64,000 nt of DNA from Polyangium spumosum (GTDB taxonomy: Bacteria; Myxococcota_A; Polyangia; Polyangiales; Polyangiaceae), in assembly GCF_009649845.1 (NCBI RefSeq), contig NZ_WJIE01000001.1, positions 186,001 through 250,000 on the forward strand, in the 5' to 3' direction. Made by a program: the position numbers and the translations under genes. Shown piece by piece: positions 52,615 through 63,157 of the stretch (position 1 is the first letter of the stretch; each line of letters opens with the position of its first letter). The notes below the pieces were generated by a model that was not told the DNA's origin, made no database searches, and saw nothing but the letters and a program-made list of their open reading frames with translations.

Positions 52615-54288
52615 TCATCCTCGCGCGGACAGGAGCCGCGCGAGCGCCTCACCCACGGCGCGGGCAAGCTCATCCATCCTGCGCGTGCCCGTCAACGTGT
52701 CGCCGAGCTCGTCGACCATGAGCACCGCCGCCGGCCGCCCCGCCACGCGCACCGCCACGACCGCCACGTCCGGGCTCGCTCGCTCCATCACCTCGAGCAA
52801 CCCCGCATGCGCCTGCGTCTCGGGCACGGGGCCGAGGTAGATCGACGTCGCCGTCGCCGTCGCGAACACGCTCGGCACGTCGTGCGGGATCGAGAGCGCT
52901 CGCAGCGCCTCCTCGTCCCCGAACTCCTCGTTGCACGTCCAGCCGTGGAACCCGTCGCGCTTGACCGCGAAGAGCGCCACCCGACGCGCGAAGAGCGCCG
53001 CACCCCCGAGCGCGAGCGACACGATCTCGTCACGCGTCGCAGCTCGCCCGAGCGCCCCGAGGATCGCGCTCGGATCCGGAAAGGGCAGGGGAGGCGGCCC
53101 CACGAACGTCTGGCGTTGCGGCTCCTCCTCGTCGTGCCCCTCGGCCGGCACAGGCGCCGGCGCCTGGCCCTTCGCGGGCACCGGGAGCGACATCGCAGGC
53201 GGCGGCACCGACACGCCACCCCGACGCGCCGACGGCGCAGGCGCAAACGAGTTCGGCCCCGCGATCGGCTCCGCGATCGGAGCCCCCAGCACCGGCGCGA
53301 GCGGACCCGCGACGGGCGCGTCGTGGGTCGTCCAGATCGACGCCGAGCGCGGCGCCTTCTCGTCGCTCGACGCGTCCTCCACGACGCGCGGCGCCGTGCC
53401 CCCGTCGCTCGACGGCACACGCGAAAAGACCGACGGATCCAGGGTCGGACGTGTCGCGCCGCGCCACGCCGTGAGCTCGGGCGGCGCCACCGCGAGCGGC
53501 GACGGCACCGACGCCGGGCCGGGCGGCGGCGTCGACGGAAACGACACTCGCGGCGGATCGTCCGGAGCCGCCGACGCAGCCGCGGCCTTCGTCGTCGGCA
53601 ACGCCGATCGAACGGCTCGCTCGACCGGCGCAGCGCCACGCAGCGTCCCCGGCGTCCCGCGTCGTGTCGCGGGCGCGGACGCGTGCGCCGCGTCCACGTC
53701 GCTCCCCTCCGGCACACGTTTGACCAGCGGGATCGGCGTGCTGATCGTCGGCGGCGGCGGGAGCGACGACACCGGCGCGCCGTACGGCGATGCAGGCGTC
53801 GCCCGCCGTGATCGATTCTTCTTCGGGGCCTCGGGGTGCGCCGCCGTGAGCTCGATCCGCCGGATCGCCTCCTCGACCGCGCCGATCGGCGCCCGCAGCA
53901 CCCGCACCGGCGCGCCGAGGTGAAACGACATCTCCGACTCGATGTGCGTATCCAGCGGATCGGCCGCGGCCACGTCGACCGTCCCCGTGAACGGATCGAG
54001 CCGCGTCGGCAGCGCGCAGAGCCTGCGACAGAGCGCGCGCGGAAGCTTCGCCACGAGATCCGGCGCGCCTTGCACGTGACGTAGCCCCGGCCCTGCGTAC
54101 CGCGCGATCTCCTCGTCGAGCTCGGCCTCCGTGATCGCCCCGCGATCCACGAGCGCGCGCGTGAACGGGATCCCTCGCACGACCGACAGGAGAAGCGCCG
54201 CCTGCACCTTCTCCCGCGTCACCAGGTTCGCCGCGATCAGGCGTCGCCCCAACTCGACCGACACGGGGCGAACGATATCACTCTTCAT
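52615..54288 (-). CDS. MshEN (GspE N-terminal)-domain protein with long linker
   Basis: This 557-residue protein starts with an MshEN-like domain (about 10-150; [20 protein letters not shown], then [20 protein letters not shown]). This is the nucleotide- or c-di-GMP-binding module of type II secretion and pilus ATPases. No ATPase follows. Instead there is a Pro/Ala-rich linker of some 230 residues and a C-terminal GAF-like domain (about 410-555). It may report second-messenger levels to another machine. It is 19 bp ahead of the mutase gene and 24 bp after the FtsB-like gene. Confidence 0.7.
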
Positions 54289-54312
54289 GTCGGCGAGGGG
54301 CCCGATGGCCCC

Positions 54313-54612
54313 TCAACGCGACGCTGGAAACTGGAAGACGACCTCGGTCTGTCGCACGAGCCCGAGGTTGTCCCGCGCGATGCGCTCGACCGCCGTCGGA
54401 TCGTCCCGCAGCCGCTCGACCCGCCCGCGCAGCGCGTCGATCTCGCGCCTGAGCTCGGCGCTCTCCTCTTCCACCTGCTCGAGCTCCCGCTCGAGGCCCC
54501 GCAGCCGCGGCAAGCCCTCGGGGGAGAGGATCATCACAGGCACCCCGATGACGGCCACGACGAGGATCCCGACCGGCAGCACCCGCTCGATCGCCAAGGT
54601 GAGTCGACGCAC
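54313..54612 (-). CDS. ftsB: FtsB/DivIC-like cell-division protein
   Basis: This 99-residue protein has one membrane helix (about 12-30, VLPVGILVVAVIGVPVMIL), then a coiled coil (LERELEQVEEESAELRREID). The conserved C-terminal motif is DPTAVERIARDNLGLVRQTEVVF. That is the FtsB/DivIC family of the divisome, which bridges FtsL and FtsQ. Length and topology fit. Confidence 0.88.
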   Translation of the reverse strand: MRRLTLAIERVLPVGILVVAVIGVPVMILSPEGLPRLRGLERELEQVEEESAELRREIDALRGRVERLRDDPTAVERIARDNLGLVRQTEVVFQFPASR

Positions 54613-54820
54613 GTCTCCCTCCCTGCCATGGCCGGGGGCGTTCGGTCAACTTTCCGGGCTCCCGCCGTCCGGAAAGCGCACGCTTTTTTGGATCGGTTGT
54701 TCTTCGCGAACGACCGGACCTTTGGCTAGCATACGCCCGGCCGCGGGCGCCCTGGTCGGTTTGGCTGGACCGGACGTTGACCAGATGAGGGCGCCGCCGC
54801 GAAGGATCCGAGGAGATTGC

Positions 54821-57800
54821 ATGTCGATCGATATCGTCCGAGGTGAGCTCGAGCGCCTCTTCTCGCTCGATGAAATGACCGCGCTGTCGAGCGAGCTGCT
54901 CGGGCTCGATCCGGCCCAGGTGGGAGGCGCCGCCTCGAAGGCATCCTTCGCGCGCGCGCTCGCGGACCGTTGCTTCGAGAACGACGCAGAGGCCGCGCTG
55001 GTCGACGCGATCCTCGCAGCGAGGCCCGAGGCCGGCGCGTCGCTCCGCGAGCTCGCGAAGAAGGGCGCGATCGCCGAAGCCGAGCTCAAGAACGGCGAGG
55101 CGTTTGGCTCCTTCACGGTGACGCGCAAGATCGGCGAGGGCCCGCGCGCCTTCGTCTACGCGGCGACGCGCAAGGCCGAGGGCGAAGGCAAGCCCGAGGA
55201 GCGGATCCTCAAGGTCTTCCGCAAGGACGCCGCGTCGGGTCCACGCGCGCTCCATCGTTTCCTCACGGCCGTGCGGCTCGCCGCGAAGGTCGAGCACGAG
55301 AGCCTGCCCGCCTCGCTCGAGGCCGGCGTCGTCTCGGGTCGCGCGTACGTCGCGTACGCGCCCATCGACGGCCAGCCGCTCGCCGCGCGCGTCACGCGCA
55401 CGGGCGCGCTGCACATCAACGAGGCGCGCGAGATCGTCCGGCAGGTCCTCTCGGCGCTCGCCGCGCTGCACGAGGCTCGCTTCGTGCACGGCAACGTCAA
55501 GCTCGACAACGTGCTCGTCGGCCGCGGCGAAGGCGGCAAGGTCCGCGCGTACCTCGTCGACGCCGGCTGCGATCGCATGATCCGCGCGGGCTGGCCCGAG
55601 GGCGTCCCTCAGATCACGCGGAACCTCTCTCCGGAGCAGATCCGCGGCGGGCTCGTCGACACGCAGAGCGACGTCTACGCCTTCGGCACCCTGCTCTTCG
55701 AGCTGCTCGCGGGCAAGCCGGCGTTCACCGGCGAGACGTCCGCCGACGTCGCTGCCGCGCACCTCGTCCGCGAAGCGCCCGCCGCGTCCACGGTCGCGCC
55801 GAAGGGCTGGGTCAACAAGGAGCTCGACGAGATCATCACGAAGCTGCTCCAGAAGGACCCGAGCGCTCGCCCCAAGGGCGCGCGCGGCGCGCTCGATCTC
55901 GTCGATCCCAAGGCCAAGGAGGCCGAAGAGGCGCCCAAGGGCAAGACGTTCACGGACGAGGAGATCAACGACCTCGCCGACCTCCTGCTCGCCGATCCGA
56001 CGGATCACGACTCGGCCCTCGCGCTGGAGAGCGCGTCGCGTGACGGCGCCGATCCGCACAAGGTCGCCGAGGCCTTCGTGATCGCGGCCTCCGAGGTCGA
56101 CGAGGGCGAGAGCGCGGGCGAGAAGATCAAGGCCGCGGAGACGAAGAAGCAGCTCCTCTTCCGCGCCGCCCGCACCTACGAGAACGTCGCGAAGGATCTG
56201 GAGAAGGCCGAGGGCGTGCTCCAGCAGATCGTCGAGCTCGACGAGGACGACGACGTCGCGTTCAGCGCGCTCGAGGACGTGCGCCGGCAGCTCGGCAAGC
56301 ACGAGGAGGTCGTCGAGATGCTCCTCGAGCGCAGCGAGAAGGCGCAGGATCCGCCGGCTCGAGCGCGCGCGCTGAACGAGATCGGCCGCCTGTACGTGCG
56401 CGAGCTCGAGGACGTCGAGCAGGGCGTCTTCGCCTTCGCGCAGGCGCTCTCCATCCTCCCCGAGAACCAGGACTACTCGAAGGATCTCGAGCGCGCGGCC
56501 GGCAGCGACATGAAGATCTGGGCCGAGGCGCTGCAGATCCTCAGCACCGCGACGACCAGCGCCGAGATGTCGACCGAGTCGAAGATCGCGCTCTTCAACC
56601 TGCTCGGGCGCTGGTACTCCGAGAAGATCGCGCGCCCCGACATGGGCCTGCCTTGCTTCCAGGCCGTGCTCTCGGCCGAGCCCGGGCACGACGGCGCGCT
56701 CGACGGCATGGCGCAGCTCTACCGCCGCGCGCAGCAGTGGCAGGAGCTCTGCCAGATCCTCCAGACCCGCGCCGATCGCGCCGCCACGCCGGAGCGCTCG
56801 CGCGAGATCCGCGCCGAGGCCGCCGAGGTGCTGGAGACGCGGCTCAACGACGCCTCGCGCGCCCGCGACCTCTACGAGCACATCTTCCAGGAAGATCCGA
56901 GCAACGACAAAGCCGCCGACGCGCTCGGCCGCATCTACCACCGCCAGGAGGACTGGGCCGGCTACGCGAAGATCCTCGAGCGCCGCGCCGACGCGCTCCG
57001 CGGCGAGGCTCGCGTCGACGCCATCTGCAAGGTCGCCGAGCTCTACGAGGATCAGCTCAACGACCTCGGCGAGGCCACGCGCCGCTACGAGGCCGCGCTC
57101 GACGTCGACCCGCACAGCCTCACCGCGCTGCGCGGCCTCGACCGCATCTACAACCGCACGGGCCGCTACAAGGAGCTCGTCGGCAACCTGGAGAAGCAGA
57201 TCTCGATCAGCGCGACGCCTCGCCAGAAGATCAACCTCTACGAGCGGCTCGCCGGCATCCACGACGAGCAGTTCCTCGATCACGGCAAGGCCGCCGAGGC
57301 GTACGAGGCGATCCTCCAGATCGATCCGGCGCACGAGGGCACGCTCACCGCGCTCATGCGGCATTACCGCGCGCTCGAGCGCTGGGAGGACGTCGTCTCG
57401 CTCTACGAGCGCCTCCTCCGCATCGTCACCGAGGACAAGCGCGTGATCGAGCTGCTCCTCGCGATGGGCCGCGTGCTCGTCGAGCAGGTCGGATCGCCCG
57501 AGCGCGCCTCCAAGGCCTACGAGAAGGTCATGGAGATCGATCCGCAACACGGCGGCGCGCTCGAGTCGCTCGCCAACGTCCGCGCCGCGTCCGGCGACGC
57601 GATGGCGGCGCTCTCCGCGATCGAGTCGCTCGCCGTGAAGGCCACGACGCCCGAGACGCGCGCCGACCTCTGGATCCGCGCCGCCAAGCTCCTCGACGAC
57701 AAGGGCGATCGCGACGGCGCGATCGAGCGTTACAAGAAGGCCCTCGACGCCCAGCCGGGCAACGTCGCGGCCTCCACCGCGCTGCGCGCCGCCTACCTCG

Positions 57801-60154
57801 CGCGCGGCGACGCCACGAGCGCCGTCGAGCTCCTCGGCCGCGAGATCGACGCCGCCGAGGGCAACCTCGCCAAGGCGCGCCTCTACGGCGAGATGGCCTT
57901 CCTCCTCCACGAGAAGCTGAAGGACACCGAGCGCGCCCAGGCCGCCGCGACGAAGGCGATCGACCTCGACCCGACGAACATGAAGGCGCTCTACGTCTCG
58001 GGCGAGATCGCCTTCAACGCGACCCGCTTCGTCGAGGCCGCGAAGCACTTCGAGTCGCTGGCGAACCGCTCCGACGCGATGCCGAAGGACCTCGCGCTCG
58101 ACGTGGTCAGCCACTACATCGACGCGCTCAGCAAGAGCGGATCGACCGAGAAGGCCGTCTCCGTCCTGCCGACCCTGCTCGCGCTCGCGCCCGACGTCCC
58201 GGAGGCGATCCGCCGCGCGGCGAAGGTCCGCTACGACGCCAAGCAGTACAAGGAGAGCGCCGCGCTCTACGTCGATCTCACGAACCGGTTCGGCGACAAG
58301 CTCGAGCCCTCGGATCGCGCCGAGGCGATGCTCTACCTCGGCCAGGCGCGGCTCTCGCTCGGCGAGGTCGAGGAGGCGGTCCTGCCGCTGCTCGACGCGG
58401 CCGACCTCATGCCCGAGGCCCCCGAGCCCATCGCGGCGCTCGTGCGCCTCTACGAGGCGAAGAAGGACTGGGAGGAGGTCATCCGCCTCAAGATGCGCCG
58501 CATCGACGTCGTCAGCGGCGAAGAGCGCGTCGCGCTGCTGCTCGACGTCGGCGACATCATGGCGGCGCAGCTCGGCGATCGCACGCGCGCGGCGAAGAGC
58601 TACGTGGCCGCGCTCGACGAGAGGCCGGACGATCGGAAGATCCTGACCAAGCTGATGCAGCTCTACAGCGAGGAGAAGGACTGGTCGAAGCTCATCGAGG
58701 TCGTCCTCAAGCTCGCGAGCAAGATCGACGACAAGCGGCAAAAGGCGAAGTACATGCACACCGCCGCGATCGTGAGCGCCCGTCAGCTCGGCGACATCGA
58801 CAAGGCGATCGAGTACTACGACCAGGTCCTCGAGCTCGATCCTTCGCTCGACAAGGCGCTCACCGAGGCGATCGAGGTCCGCGAGCAGAAGGGCGATTGG
58901 GAGGGCGTGGAGCGCCTCTACCGCGTCGATCTCGAGCGAGCGACCGATCACAACGACACGCCGAAGATGCTCGCCACGATGGAGAAGCTCGGCGCGCTCT
59001 ACAAGGACAAGCTCGGCGCGATCGCCGACGCGATCGACGCCTACGAGGCCGCGCAGACGCTCGATCCCGAGAACCACGAGCGCGAGGAGCAGCTCGCCAA
59101 GCTCTACGCGAGCGACCCGGCGCAGTACCTCGACAAGGCCGTGTCCGCGCAGGCGATCCTGCTCCGCAGAAACCCGTACCGCCCCGAGCCCTACAAGCTC
59201 CTGCGCAAGCTCTACACCGAGTCGAAGCGAGCGGACGCGGCCTTCTGCCTCTGCCAGGCGCTCACGCTGATGAGCTTCGCCGAGCCCGACGAGGAGCGCT
59301 TCTTCAAGCGCATGCGCTCGGACACGGCCGCCGCGGCGCAGGTCCCGCTCGGCGAGGAGGACTGGTTCGCGAACCTCACGCACCCGGACGCCGACCCGCT
59401 GCTGACGAACGTCTTCGCCGTCATCCAGCCGGCCGTGATCATGAAGAACGGCCAGCCGCTCGAGGCGCTCGGTTATCAGATGGCGTACGCGATCGACCTC
59501 ATGCGGCACCCGTATCCGCTCTCGCAGACGATCGTGTTCTCGGCGGGCGTGCTGGGCCTCGAGTTGCCGCTCTGCTTCCAGAATCCCATGGATCCTGGAG
59601 GGATGAGCTTCCTGCACGCGCACACGCCCTCGATCGTGCTCGGCGCCGCCGCGCTCGCCGCGGAGGTGCCCCCGCAGATGGGCGCGTTCATCGCGAGCCG
59701 CCACCTCACGTACTACCGGTCCGGCATGTACCTTCGGCACCTCGTCCCCACGGGCACGGGGCTCCGCGCGTGGCTCTTCGCGGCGATCAAGCTCATCTCG
59801 CCGAACTTCCCGATCTCCAAGGACATCGAAGGTCCGGTGAAGGAGAACCTCGCGGTGATCGAGTCGACGATCACGGGCGCGCGCCGCGACGAGCTCGCGA
59901 GCGCAGTGACGAAGCTGCTTCAGGCCGGCGCCATCGACCTGAAGAAGTGGGTCGCGGGTGTCGACCTCACGGCCGATCGTGCGGGCTTCATCGTGGCGAA
60001 CGACCTCGAGATCGCGCACGAGATCATCAAGGCTGCCGACGACGCCTCGACCGCCGTGCCGCAGAAGGAGCGCCTCAAGGAGCTCACGCTCTTCGCGGTC
60101 AGCGAGGACTACTTCGCCATCCGCCAGAAGCTCGGCATCAACATCGACGCCTGA
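54821..60154 (+). CDS. giant pseudokinase-TPR protein
   Basis: This 1,777-residue cytoplasmic protein has a short N-terminal helical region and then a kinase-like domain (about 90-345). It keeps the overall fold (SPEQIRGGLVDTQSDVYAFG), but the catalytic loop reads FVHGNVKLDN where HRD is expected, and DAG replaces DFG. It is therefore inactive. From about 400 to 1500 come some 25 helical TPR units (repeats such as YEAILQIDPAHEGTLTAL). The last 280 residues form a conserved globular domain (PLEALGYQMAYAIDLMRHPY). No membrane helix is present. It is likely a large scaffold, seen in many myxobacteria. ATG 54821 follows AGGAGATTGC. Confidence 0.85.
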   Translation: MSIDIVRGELERLFSLDEMTALSSELLGLDPAQVGGAASKASFARALADRCFENDAEAALVDAILAARPEAGASLRELAKKGAIAEAELKNGEAFGSFTVTRKIGEGPRAFVYAATRKAEGEGKPEERILKVFRKDAASGPRALHRFLTAVRLAAKVEHESLPASLEAGVVSGRAYVAYAPIDGQPLAARVTRTGALHINEAREIVRQVLSALAALHEARFVHGNVKLDNVLVGRGEGGKVRAYLVDAGCDRMIRAGWPEGVPQITRNLSPEQIRGGLVDTQSDVYAFGTLLFELLAGKPAFTGETSADVAAAHLVREAPAASTVAPKGWVNKELDEIITKLLQKDPSARPKGARGALDLVDPKAKEAEEAPKGKTFTDEEINDLADLLLADPTDHDSALALESASRDGADPHKVAEAFVIAASEVDEGESAGEKIKAAETKKQLLFRAARTYENVAKDLEKAEGVLQQIVELDEDDDVAFSALEDVRRQLGKHEEVVEMLLERSEKAQDPPARARALNEIGRLYVRELEDVEQGVFAFAQALSILPENQDYSKDLERAAGSDMKIWAEALQILSTATTSAEMSTESKIALFNLLGRWYSEKIARPDMGLPCFQAVLSAEPGHDGALDGMAQLYRRAQQWQELCQILQTRADRAATPERSREIRAEAAEVLETRLNDASRARDLYEHIFQEDPSNDKAADALGRIYHRQEDWAGYAKILERRADALRGEARVDAICKVAELYEDQLNDLGEATRRYEAALDVDPHSLTALRGLDRIYNRTGRYKELVGNLEKQISISATPRQKINLYERLAGIHDEQFLDHGKAAEAYEAILQIDPAHEGTLTALMRHYRALERWEDVVSLYERLLRIVTEDKRVIELLLAMGRVLVEQVGSPERASKAYEKVMEIDPQHGGALESLANVRAASGDAMAALSAIESLAVKATTPETRADLWIRAAKLLDDKGDRDGAIERYKKALDAQPGNVAASTALRAAYLARGDATSAVELLGREIDAAEGNLAKARLYGEMAFLLHEKLKDTERAQAAATKAIDLDPTNMKALYVSGEIAFNATRFVEAAKHFESLANRSDAMPKDLALDVVSHYIDALSKSGSTEKAVSVLPTLLALAPDVPEAIRRAAKVRYDAKQYKESAALYVDLTNRFGDKLEPSDRAEAMLYLGQARLSLGEVEEAVLPLLDAADLMPEAPEPIAALVRLYEAKKDWEEVIRLKMRRIDVVSGEERVALLLDVGDIMAAQLGDRTRAAKSYVAALDERPDDRKILTKLMQLYSEEKDWSKLIEVVLKLASKIDDKRQKAKYMHTAAIVSARQLGDIDKAIEYYDQVLELDPSLDKALTEAIEVREQKGDWEGVERLYRVDLERATDHNDTPKMLATMEKLGALYKDKLGAIADAIDAYEAAQTLDPENHEREEQLAKLYASDPAQYLDKAVSAQAILLRRNPYRPEPYKLLRKLYTESKRADAAFCLCQALTLMSFAEPDEERFFKRMRSDTAAAAQVPLGEEDWFANLTHPDADPLLTNVFAVIQPAVIMKNGQPLEALGYQMAYAIDLMRHPYPLSQTIVFSAGVLGLELPLCFQNPMDPGGMSFLHAHTPSIVLGAAALAAEVPPQMGAFIASRHLTYYRSGMYLRHLVPTGTGLRAWLFAAIKLISPNFPISKDIEGPVKENLAVIESTITGARRDELASAVTKLLQAGAIDLKKWVAGVDLTADRAGFIVANDLEIAHEIIKAADDASTAVPQKERLKELTLFAVSEDYFAIRQKLGINIDA

Positions 60155-60436: not shown

Positions 60437-62227
60437 ATGGCGGCTAAAAAGACCCGTAAATTGGCCAAGAACACCAAGAAGAAGGCAGCTCCCCGAGCCA
60501 AGGCGAGTCGGCGCGCGGCCCCGCCGCGAAAAACCGCAGCGGCGAAGCTCAAAAAGAAGCCGCGCGCGCAGGCCACGAAGCGGGCGAAGCCAGCCGCCAA
60601 GAAGGCCGTCCGCAAGGTGGCCTCGACCACTGCCTCGCGCGCGAAACGCGTGGCCGTGGTGAAGAAACGCGCGGCCGTCAAGAAGGCCAAGGCCGCCGCG
60701 AAGCCGAAGAAAAAAGCGGCGGTCGTCCGCGCCAAACGCGCGCCGGTCCGAAAAGCGCAAAGCCCCGCGAAGAAGAGGGTCAAGCGCGCCATCACGAAGA
60801 AGAAGTCGAAGAAGGTCGCGCGTAAGCCCGTCCGCGCGGTCGAGCGCCGCGCGGCCCGCGTGATCCCGCGCAAGAAGAAGGCGGCGGTCACCAAGGTCAA
60901 GCGCGCCGCGCGCCCGGCCGCGAAGGCCACGAAGGCCCGCGCGGCCAAACGTGTCGCCAAGCCGGCACGTCCCAAGCGCCCCGCTCGCCCCGCCGCGAAG
61001 GCCCGCACGGTCGAGAAGGCCCGCAAGAAGGCCGAGCTGCGGGAGGCGCGGGAGGCCAGGGAGGCGCGGGAGGCCAAGGAGGCCAAGGAGGCCAAGGCCG
61101 CCGCCAAGGCTCGCGCCGCGCGCGAGGCGGAGGAGGCCGAGCGGCTCGCCGCCAAGGAGGCGCGCCGGGCGAAGAAGGACAAAGCGGCCCGCAAGGAGCG
61201 CAAGGAGAAGGAGGCCGAGAGGGCCCCGGCTCCGAAGGAGAAGGCCAAGGCCCTCCCGCTCAAGGAGAAGGGCAAAGTCGGCAAGGAGAAGCCGGCCGAG
61301 GAGCGGGCGCCCGCCGCCAAGGAAAAGGGCGGCAAGGCCAAGAAGAAGGGCAAGGAGGGCAAGCTCCTCAAGGCCGACAAGCCGCGTGAGGGTCGCCTCA
61401 TCGCGGTGCGCGAGCCTGCCCCGCGTGTCGTGACCCTGCCGCTGCCGCTCCTGCCGCCGCAGCGCCGCGCGACCATCGAGGAGCGCTCCGAGATCATCGA
61501 GAAGCGCCTCGCTGCGCAGACCGAGGAGTTCCAGAAGAACTACACGGACCGCTTCGACATGTCGTGGATCTTCCACGACAGCGCGCTCGAGGGCGTCGTG
61601 TACACCTTCGAGGAGCTACGGACGGCGCTCTCCGGGTATGCCCCGCCGGTCTCGGACACGAACCTTCAGCCCACGTACGACGACATTCGCCGCCACAAGG
61701 AGGCGATCGAGTTCGTCCGCGATTACGGCAAGAAGAAGCTGCCCGTCACGATCGACGTGATCAAGAAGATCTACCTCATCCTCCATCCGGAAGAGGGAGA
61801 CATCAAGACCGTCAAGTACCGGAAGGACATCCCGCAGCACCGGCTGTATTTCCACGAGTATGCGCCGCCGGACAAGATCGCCTACAAGGTGCGGCAAATC
61901 GTGGATTGGCTGAACGATCCCGAGACGCGCAAGACCCGCAATGGCCTGCGCATCGCGGCCCGCGCCCACTACGACCTGCTCCGCGTCTATCCCTTCCAGT
62001 CGGACAGCGGCAAGGTCGCGCGCCTGTTCATGAACCTCCTGCTCATCCGCTCGGGCCTGCCGCCGTCGATCATCCACTCGACCGAGCGGCAGCGGTACTA
62101 CGAGGCCCTCAAGGGCTCGGCCACGACCGTGCTCCAGATGGTGCAGGAGGCGGTCGAGAACGCCCTCTCCAGCGTGGAGAAGCTCCTCGACGAGTACGAG
62201 ACCCGAAAGCGCGCTTTCGTGAGCTGA
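60437..62227 (+). CDS. histone-H1-like basic protein fused to a degenerate Fic domain
   Basis: This 596-residue protein has two very different halves. Residues 1-330 are Lys/Ala/Arg-rich with KAAVKK- and AKEAKEAK-type repeats, like histone H1 or AlgP tails, and should bind DNA. Residues about 360-596 fold like a Fic domain. An inhibitory-helix-like SALEG (382-386) comes first. At the active loop the family HPFxDGNGR becomes Tyr518-Pro-Phe-Gln-Ser-Asp-Ser-Gly-Lys-Val-Ala-Arg529. The catalytic His is Tyr and the GNGR anion hole is mostly lost, so AMP transfer is unlikely. ATG 60437. A role in nucleoid binding or gene control is inferred; no partner gene is near. Confidence 0.75.
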   Translation: MAAKKTRKLAKNTKKKAAPRAKASRRAAPPRKTAAAKLKKKPRAQATKRAKPAAKKAVRKVASTTASRAKRVAVVKKRAAVKKAKAAAKPKKKAAVVRAKRAPVRKAQSPAKKRVKRAITKKKSKKVARKPVRAVERRAARVIPRKKKAAVTKVKRAARPAAKATKARAAKRVAKPARPKRPARPAAKARTVEKARKKAELREAREAREAREAKEAKEAKAAAKARAAREAEEAERLAAKEARRAKKDKAARKERKEKEAERAPAPKEKAKALPLKEKGKVGKEKPAEERAPAAKEKGGKAKKKGKEGKLLKADKPREGRLIAVREPAPRVVTLPLPLLPPQRRATIEERSEIIEKRLAAQTEEFQKNYTDRFDMSWIFHDSALEGVVYTFEELRTALSGYAPPVSDTNLQPTYDDIRRHKEAIEFVRDYGKKKLPVTIDVIKKIYLILHPEEGDIKTVKYRKDIPQHRLYFHEYAPPDKIAYKVRQIVDWLNDPETRKTRNGLRIAARAHYDLLRVYPFQSDSGKVARLFMNLLLIRSGLPPSIIHSTERQRYYEALKGSATTVLQMVQEAVENALSSVEKLLDEYETRKRAFVS

Positions 62228-62347: not shown

Positions 62348-63157
62348 ATGACCGCGACGAACCAGGCCCGAGCGCGCGCGCAGGACACCTTCAGGCGTCT
62401 GCGCCTGATCCACACCGACGCACACTGCGAGCTCGACCATGTGAACCCGTTCCAGCTCCTCGTCGCCACCGTGCTCAGCGCGCAGACGACGGACGTGCTC
62501 GTCAATCAGATCACGCCGAAGCTGTTCGCCCGCTGGCCCGACGCGAGATCACTCGCGGCGGCGCCGGTCGCCGAGGTCTCGGCGGTGCTGCGCGAGCGGC
62601 TCGGGATGTTCAACCAGAAGGGGAAAAACATCGTCGGGCTCGCGAAGAAGCTCGCGGAGAAGCACGGCGGCGAGGTGCCGCGGACACTCGCCGAGCTCGT
62701 GGAGCTGCCCGGCGTGGGGCGAAAAACGGCGAACGTGGTGCTCGGCGTCGCGTTTGGCAGGCCCGAGGGCGTCGTCGTGGACACGCACGTGCAGCGGCTC
62801 GCGCAGCGGCTCGGCTGGACCACGGAGACGAAGCCCGAGAAGATCGAGCCGGCGCTCTGCGCGCTCTTCCCGCCCGAAGACTGGAACATGGTGTCGCTCG
62901 TCTTGATCTTTCACGGGCGAAGGGTGTGCTTCGCGAAGAAGCCCGCGTGCGCCGCGTGCGGGGTGAACGACGCCTGTCCGAGCGCGTTCGCCGCGGAGAA
63001 CGTGGGGCGCAAGCCGCCGAAGAAGCGGCCGGCCGTGGTCATCGAGGCGCCGAAGAAGAAGGCGACGGCGAAGAAGGTCGCGACGAAGAAGGCGGCCACG
63101 AAGAAGGCGGCCACGAAGAAGGCCGCGGCGAAAGGGAAGGGGAGCCGGAAGGGTTAA
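62348..63157 (+). CDS. nth: endonuclease III with basic C-terminal tail
   Basis: This 269-residue DNA glycosylase/AP lyase removes oxidised pyrimidines. The HhH motif and catalytic Lys are in ELPGVGRKTANVVLG, the Asp in VVVDTHVQRLAQRLG, and the iron-sulfur cysteines in CFAKKPACAACGVNDAC. It has a 55-residue extra tail made of ATKKA-type repeats (residues about 215-269), giving non-specific DNA affinity. Its TAA overlaps the TAA of the convergent meaB gene. Confidence 0.95.
   Translation: MTATNQARARAQDTFRRLRLIHTDAHCELDHVNPFQLLVATVLSAQTTDVLVNQITPKLFARWPDARSLAAAPVAEVSAVLRERLGMFNQKGKNIVGLAKKLAEKHGGEVPRTLAELVELPGVGRKTANVVLGVAFGRPEGVVVDTHVQRLAQRLGWTTETKPEKIEPALCALFPPEDWNMVSLVLIFHGRRVCFAKKPACAACGVNDACPSAFAAENVGRKPPKKRPAVVIEAPKKKATAKKVATKKAATKKAATKKAAAKGKGSRKG

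What the first reader, a model, noticed from the sequence alone, without database searches (positions are those of the whole stretch)
60437..62227. Histone-H1-like tail fused to a Fic domain with destroyed active loop
A 330-residue Lys/Ala-rich DNA-binding-like tail joined to a Fic fold is unusual. The HPFx(D/E)GNGR loop is Tyr518-Pro-Phe-Gln-Ser-Asp-Ser-Gly-Lys, losing the catalytic His and most of the anion hole. The Fic part may be a ligand- or protein-binding module guiding a nucleoid protein. Alternatively it may carry out different chemistry.
Basis: partly seen in the sequence, partly recalled or inferred. Interest (0 to 1): 0.66.

Follow-up and report, generated by a model that had tools for sequence, protein, structure and literature searches.

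The report
Conserved Fic look-alike with basic tail
This soil bacterium carries a protein with the shape of a Fic enzyme that attaches AMP to other proteins, but its active site was rebuilt long ago and has stayed that way in its relatives, while one family later added a long histone-H1-like tail that may tie it to DNA.

Summary
The ORF at 60437-62227 encodes 596 aa: a 336-residue basic tail and a Fic-fold core (predicted pLDDT 91; best match FICD, Z 26.3). Its loop reads YPFQSDSGK instead of HPFx(D/E)GNGR. The loop is not local decay. None of 144 distinct homologues from Myxococcota has the canonical motif; His is replaced by Phe/Tyr/Trp in 142. The non-canonical rows form one clade (99/99) apart from canonical Fics of the same class. 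The gene is near-universal in that class (100 of 104 sampled genomes, as read from the listing). The inhibitory-helix Glu and the second motif Arg are kept (142 and 144 of 144). Family-specific invariants sit in the flap (Y471 in 144, H468 and R469 in 132 of 144). Most likely this is a pseudo-Fic binding module held near nucleic acid by an H1-like tail. A new chemistry is not excluded. Partner, ligand and DNA binding are untested.

The parts
60437..62227 (+). whole gene, 596 aa plus stop
60437..60994 (+). residues 1-186: H1-like Lys/Arg/Ala/Pro region, almost no acidic residues, low model confidence (probably disordered)
   Evidence: coding evidence
60995..61222 (+). residues 187-262: Lys/Arg/Glu/Ala repeat predicted as one long charged helix (block pLDDT 59-84)
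   Evidence: 5-sequence alignment only
61223..61444 (+). residues 263-336: Lys/Glu/Pro linker, low model confidence
61445..62224 (+). residues 337-596: Fic-fold core
   Evidence: pLDDT 91.2, pTM 0.89; FICD Z 26.3 over 241 residues; PF02661
61574..61594 (+). residues 380-386 HDSALEG: inhibitory-helix equivalent with Glu385 (FICD Glu234)
61817..61876 (+). residues 461-480 YRKDIPQHRLYFHEYAPPDK: hyperconserved flap region
61988..62014 (+). residues 518-526 YPFQSDSGK: altered Fic active loop
62021..62023 (+). Arg529, second Arg of the Fic motif, kept in 144 of 144 homologues

Best explanation
A pseudo-Fic: an ancient Fic-fold protein of Myxococcota that no longer transfers AMP and works as a binding module. 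Shown: Fic fold (predicted), loss of the catalytic His and of the Mg-binding acid position, retention of the inhibitory Glu and second Arg, a flap and loop with their own conserved residues, and a later, variable basic N-terminal tail. Inferred: Glu385 and Arg529 still pair, as in autoinhibited Fic proteins, which would hold the old nucleotide site shut or reduced; the conserved flap (PxHRxYFHE), which in active Fics registers the target protein, docks a conserved partner; and in the Polyangiaceae the H1-like tail and charged helix tether this core to DNA or another polyanion.
For: 0 of 144 distinct homologues keep HPFx(D/E)GN; position 518 is F 89, Y 48, W 5, H 1, S 1; position 522 has 15 different residues, acidic in 14 of 144. 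E385 equivalent is Glu in 142, R529 equivalent Arg in 144, flap Y471 in 144, H468 and R469 in 132 each. Family-specific conserved columns against 10 canonical Fics cluster in the inhibitory helix, flap and loop. Non-canonical rows are one side of a branch, 99/99, against 23 canonical Fics of the same class. Orthologue in 55 of 59 relatives at E below 1e-22. AF2 core 91.2 pLDDT, FICD Z 26.3. Tail: 41 long, 29 stub, 1 none, 13 undetermined among 84 rows of the closest group; outside it 30 none, 1 stub, 29 undetermined of 60. Precedents: BepC acts through its Fic domain without an intact motif (PMC7842960, passages); KPAA tails bind DNA in AlgP and PhaF (PMC9239181, passages); [quoted passage not shown]
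Against: No biochemistry. The old pocket is still the most family-specific conserved region, which would also fit a changed catalyst. Lys or Arg at 526 in 116 of 144 could still bind phosphate. No conserved neighbour points to a partner (largest cluster 32 of 140 loci). The flap is the least confident part of the core (pLDDT 66) and no coordinates could be measured, so the Glu-Arg pairing is inferred from alignment. In BepC the flap could be exchanged without loss of effect, so a flap docking role has no direct precedent there. DNA binding by the tail is inferred from composition.
Confidence: 0.52

Rival explanations
1. Different chemistry: the Fic fold was re-used as an enzyme whose reactive residues are the flap His/Arg/Tyr/Glu and the (S/T)G(K/R) loop, not the lost His.
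For: Family-specific conserved residues sit around the old active site: H380, D381, P466, H468, R469, Y471, S524, H547; Gly525 in 142, Lys/Arg526 in 116 and Arg529 in 144 of 144.
Against: The loop is not fixed: position 526 is neither Lys nor Arg in 28 of 144, position 522 is free, and in one phylum-level group the flap changes to a RDTSPGxY type, so no single catalytic set is conserved beyond Y471, R462, E385 and R529.
Confidence: 0.25
2. Nucleotide sensor: the core binds ATP or another phosphate ligand without turnover and changes its partner or tail contacts.
For: Gly525, Lys526 and Arg529 remain at a predicted helix start; canonical wild-type Fics bind ATP non-productively despite the inhibitory Glu (PMC3667792, passages).
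Against: Mg-binding position not conserved; Asn replaced by Ser, Pro or Thr in 142 of 144.
Confidence: 0.15
3. The tail serves a polyanion other than DNA (polyphosphate granules, RNA or ribosomes), or mainly acts as a localisation or solubility extension.
For: AlgP with a KPAA tail associates with polyphosphate granules (PMC9239181, passages). Composition alone cannot tell targets apart.
Against: PhaF and CarD tails are described as DNA-binding. No test here separates them.
Confidence: 0.3
4. Decayed remnant or pseudogene of an AMP transferase.
For: Catalytic His and most motif residues are gone.
Against: Open in nearly all sampled genomes of a class, strong constraint (5 non-synonymous against 23 synonymous codons in the core), one clade, own conserved motif.
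Confidence: 0.02

Closest known systems
FICD/HYPE-type class II Fic proteins (6i7g, 4u04; bacterial 3cuc)
   Same: fold over 241 residues at Z 26.3, N-terminal inhibitory helix with Glu-Gly, second motif Arg, Tyr-Arg before the flap
   Different: no catalytic His, no Mg-binding acid, Asn to Ser, first Arg to Lys; Ser/Thr of the inhibitory motif is Asp; different conserved flap
BepC of Bartonella (4wgj), a Fic protein shown to act without an intact motif
   Same: Fic fold (Z 13.1), non-canonical loop, non-enzymatic binding role (PMC7842960, passages)
   Different: BepC keeps His and GNGR (HxFxKGNGRxxR) and is a translocated effector with OB and BID domains; this gene is near-universal in its class
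Doc clade D2 and Fic clade F3 of PMC4454073 (passages)
   Same: natural clades with altered key motif residues (His to Gln; Asp to Asn)
   Different: other substitutions; here nearly the whole loop is replaced
XopAC/AvrAC (NF041381)
   Same: weak match of the Fic domain, E 6.5e-9, 35 bits
   Different: cut-off is 450 bits; not a member
AlgP/PhaF and CarD K/A/P-rich tails (passages)
   Same: Lys/Ala/Pro-rich H1-like tail attached to another domain
   Different: here N-terminal, also Arg-rich, with a charged helix, and attached to a Fic fold
CccR and CbFic2, Fic proteins with a helix-turn-helix (PMC9755527, PMC10628234, passages)
   Same: Fic fold joined to a DNA-binding part
   Different: those are active AMP transferases with His and an HTH domain

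Membership tests
Pfam Fic/DOC (PF02661) | model score at or above 24 bits | tested here: met
   38.4 bits
Fic fold (Fido) | six-helix Fic core | tested here: met
   AF2 pLDDT 91.2, FICD Z 26.3, rmsd 2.6 over 241 residues; a prediction, not a solved structure
Fic AMP transferases | HPFx(D/E)GNGRxxR with catalytic His | tested here: not met
   YPFQSDSGKVAR; 0 of 144 homologues have HPFx(D/E)GN
Fic AMP transferases | AMP transfer activity | not testable with these tools
   needs protein
Class II Fic proteins | N-terminal inhibitory Glu followed by Gly | tested here: met
   E385 equivalent Glu in 142 of 144, Asp in 2; Gly386 conserved throughout
Class II Fic proteins | full motif (S/T)xxxE(G/N) | tested here: not met
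   Asp in 140, Glu in 4 of 144 at the Ser/Thr position
FicTA toxin-antitoxin modules | small antitoxin gene next to the fic gene | tested here: inconclusive
   no universal neighbour, but only frames of 110 aa or more were clustered
Doc kinases | HPFxDANKR-type loop with His | tested here: not met
   loop sequence; the Doc motif is recalled
XopAC/AvrAC NF041381 | curated cut-off 450 bits | tested here: not met
   35 bits
H1-like K/A/P tail proteins | Lys/Ala/Pro-rich, acid-poor extension | tested here: met
   residues 1-196: 51 K, 31 R, 56 A, 15 P, 2 acidic
H1-like K/A/P tail proteins | binds DNA | not testable with these tools
   needs a binding assay

The most novel reading that the evidence does not exclude
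A phylum-old Fic-derived family that abandoned nucleotidyl transfer and built a new active or signalling site from the flap and an aromatic-Pro-aromatic...(S/T)-Gly loop, became a near-universal housekeeping gene of a bacterial class, and was later fastened to the chromosome by an expanding histone-H1-like tail: a new chromosome-associated activity on the Fic fold.
Probability: 0.2. Interest if true: 0.8.

Novelty: new variant of a known kind. Interest (0 to 1): 0.55.

Why it matters
Fic proteins are usually discussed as toxins, effectors or stress regulators. Here is a Fic-derived gene that looks like housekeeping: near-universal in its class, mostly one copy, strongly constrained, with its catalytic His lost on one branch of the tree. 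If it is a pseudoenzyme, it would be a natural case where the regulatory parts of the Fic fold (inhibitory Glu, flap) outlived catalysis. The tail shows how a basic extension can range from a stub of about 20 residues to over 400 in one group while the core hardly changes, which makes tail function testable by comparing natural variants.

Tried and rejected
Decay or pseudogene: rejected by spread, constraint and one-clade origin. Frame artefact of a GC-rich genome for the tail: rejected by the codon-position pattern. Operon partner: no cluster of neighbours in more than 32 of 140 loci; subclades have their own neighbours (frames under 110 aa not examined; the output was cut in the middle and its first clusters were printed again). 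Viral relatives: none in viral contigs; distant Fics in 24 phage records and 206 plasmid records, of which I fetched 9: 8 have a His-bearing HPFxxGNGR loop, one (Aneurinibacillus) lacks His. In one search two of these nine were left out of the canonical set: that one, and the Halomonas copy, whose match lies in two frames. Tail homologues elsewhere in the genome: only itself at E below 1e-3 (low-complexity matching is weak). A promoter scan found nothing; an inverted-repeat search upstream found no pair of 12 or more, so a short hairpin that I noted is not claimed. The full-length model rests on 5 sequences and has a poor Fic part; used for the tail only. PHROGs matches have no known function and were not followed. 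Not done: a search for the family in genomes outside Myxococcota (the single genome-contig scan used patterns from the closest group), so its limit to this phylum is not shown. The loop was read in only 20 of the 64 matching genomes outside the class, chosen among the stronger matches; weak matches may be ordinary Fics. Rows dropped before the 144 count: repeats of the same sequence among 198 loci and matches under 150 or 170 residues.

Full report
What is there. The window gene at 60437-62227 on the + strand encodes 596 residues. It starts 282 bases after a large gene for a Ser/Thr kinase-TPR protein (Pfam) and ends 120 bases before a gene matching endonuclease III-type HhH-GPD DNA repair proteins. 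The genome is a Polyangium relative: the core is 98% identical to that of Polyangium fumosum DSM 14668.

Anatomy. Residues 1-196 hold 51 Lys, 31 Arg, 56 Ala, 15 Pro and 2 acidic residues. The full-length model gives low confidence over most of residues 1-186, one long helix at 187-262 (block pLDDT 59-84), and low confidence again to about 342. The core, residues 337-596, is predicted at pLDDT 91.2 and pTM 0.89 from 66 aligned sequences. Its best structural match is FICD, Z 26.3, rmsd 2.6 over 241 residues, covering FICD 193-442 and thus the inhibitory helix as well. Foldseek agrees (E 1.8e-9), as do Pfam and phmmer.

The loop. FICD has HPFIDGNGRTSR, this protein YPFQSDSGKVAR. In 144 distinct homologous domains the His position is F 89, Y 48, W 5, H 1, S 1. 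The Mg-binding position is acidic in 14. Asn is replaced by Ser 127, Pro 8, Thr 7, Ala 1 and kept in 1. The second Gly is kept in 142, the first Arg is Lys 106 or Arg 10, and the second Arg is kept in 144. None has HPFx(D/E)GN. The single row with His (L153) reads HPFARHSGK, so it has not regained the motif. Canonical Fics do occur in the same class: 23 of 30 fetched loci carry an HP(F/Y)x(D/G)GNGRxxR loop in a usable domain; the other 7 were dropped.

History. A maximum-likelihood tree of 35 non-canonical and 23 canonical domains puts all non-canonical ones on one side of a branch, 99/99, in 100% of 200 bootstrap trees. The canonical rows were chosen by motif, and the bootstrap had not fully settled. 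In 59 close relatives 57 have some match; 55 are clear orthologues (E below 1e-22), two have only weak Fic matches and two none. In a 377-genome sample of the phylum 164 match. Reading the kinship column, 100 matching genomes lie within the class and 4 non-matching ones do. Those 4 are listed before the first non-matching genome from outside the class, and 193 further non-matching rows are not printed, so this count rests on the listing being ordered by kinship. Most have one match. Outside the class 64 of 273 match, on the same reading; I read the loop in 20 of these and all are non-canonical.

What is conserved. Against 10 canonical Fics (7 fetched plasmid and phage copies and 3 from the class), the columns conserved in this family but not there include H380, D381, V388, A397, R418, P466, H468, R469, Y471, R486, S524, H547 and Q552. 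Shared columns include E385, G386, Y461, R462, H511, P519, G525, R529, N533, R551 and Y554. So the family kept the Fic skeleton and the inhibitory Glu and motif Arg, and has its own residues in the inhibitory helix, flap and loop. Y471 in the flap is invariant in 144; H468 and R469 are each in 132, and one phylum-level group has another flap.

The tail. In the closest group (84 distinct sequences from the near relatives, families f1 and f8, and the named loci) 41 have tails of 116-468 residues, 29 have short starts of 16-78 residues with at least 3 Lys, 1 has none, and 13 could not be judged (truncated or no ATG). Outside it 30 have none, 29 could not be judged and 1 has a short stretch with 3 Lys. 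A tree of the cores needs 5 changes between long and other, against 23.7 in shuffles, so length is inherited but changed several times. Starts are first-ATG guesses. The tail is translated and under weaker constraint than the core. Only this gene and the neighbouring repair gene show such stretches in the window.

How it may work. In active Fics the catalytic His deprotonates the target hydroxyl and the acidic residue binds the metal ion (PMC10628234 and PMC4454073, passages read). Both are gone here, so ordinary AMP transfer is very unlikely. In wild-type Fics the inhibitory Glu forms a salt bridge with the motif Arg (PMC10628234) and prevents productive ATP binding (PMC3667792, passages). 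Both residues are kept here, which suggests a pocket held in the inhibited form. BepC shows that a Fic domain can act by binding: its motif and flap could be changed without loss of its effect (PMC7842960, passages). H1-like tails that bind DNA are described in AlgP, PhaF and myxobacterial CarD. I therefore read this protein as a pseudo-Fic docking module, placed near DNA or another polyanion by the tail in one family. Every step after the loss of the motif is inference.

Novelty. I found no paper on such a family. Searches: Fic + myxobacteria + AMPylation (0 papers); Fic domain + deltaproteobacteria (1 paper, PMC4454073, which has no occurrence of Myxococc or Sorangium); degenerate or pseudoenzyme Fic terms; Fic with Sorangium cellulosum or histone H1; Fic, pseudoenzyme, core gene or Polyangiales; Fic domain with myxobacterial names (the 8 listed of 359 have no 'Fic domain'). 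Only open-licence papers are held, and listings were read, not every paper. Non-canonical Fic clades as such are known, so this is a new variant of a known kind.

Noticed in passing
62348-63157 (+): The next gene, an endonuclease III-like repair protein, also ends in a Lys/Ala-rich tail; these two genes hold the only such stretches found in the window. A Polyangium relative's copy has a tail too (L062).
   Followed up: partly
54131-60154 (+): Upstream frame encodes a Ser/Thr protein kinase domain joined to many TPR repeats; a gene of the same cluster precedes the Fic-like gene also in Polyangium and Sorangium loci.
   Followed up: partly
L032 (own genome G000:C3, about 653017): The only other Fic-family match over the cut-off in this genome is a short Doc-type frame with HPFHNGNKR.
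   Followed up: no
L231: A Fic family protein on an Aneurinibacillus plasmid also lacks the catalytic His (loop SPFFVGNGK).
   Followed up: no
L153: One family member has His at the catalytic position but within a non-canonical loop (HPFARHSGK).
   Followed up: no
L179-L198: Phylum-level relatives include two further flap types, SPVHRDYxQ and RDTSPGxY, with loops such as YPFRRNPGT and FPFDERTGV.
   Followed up: partly
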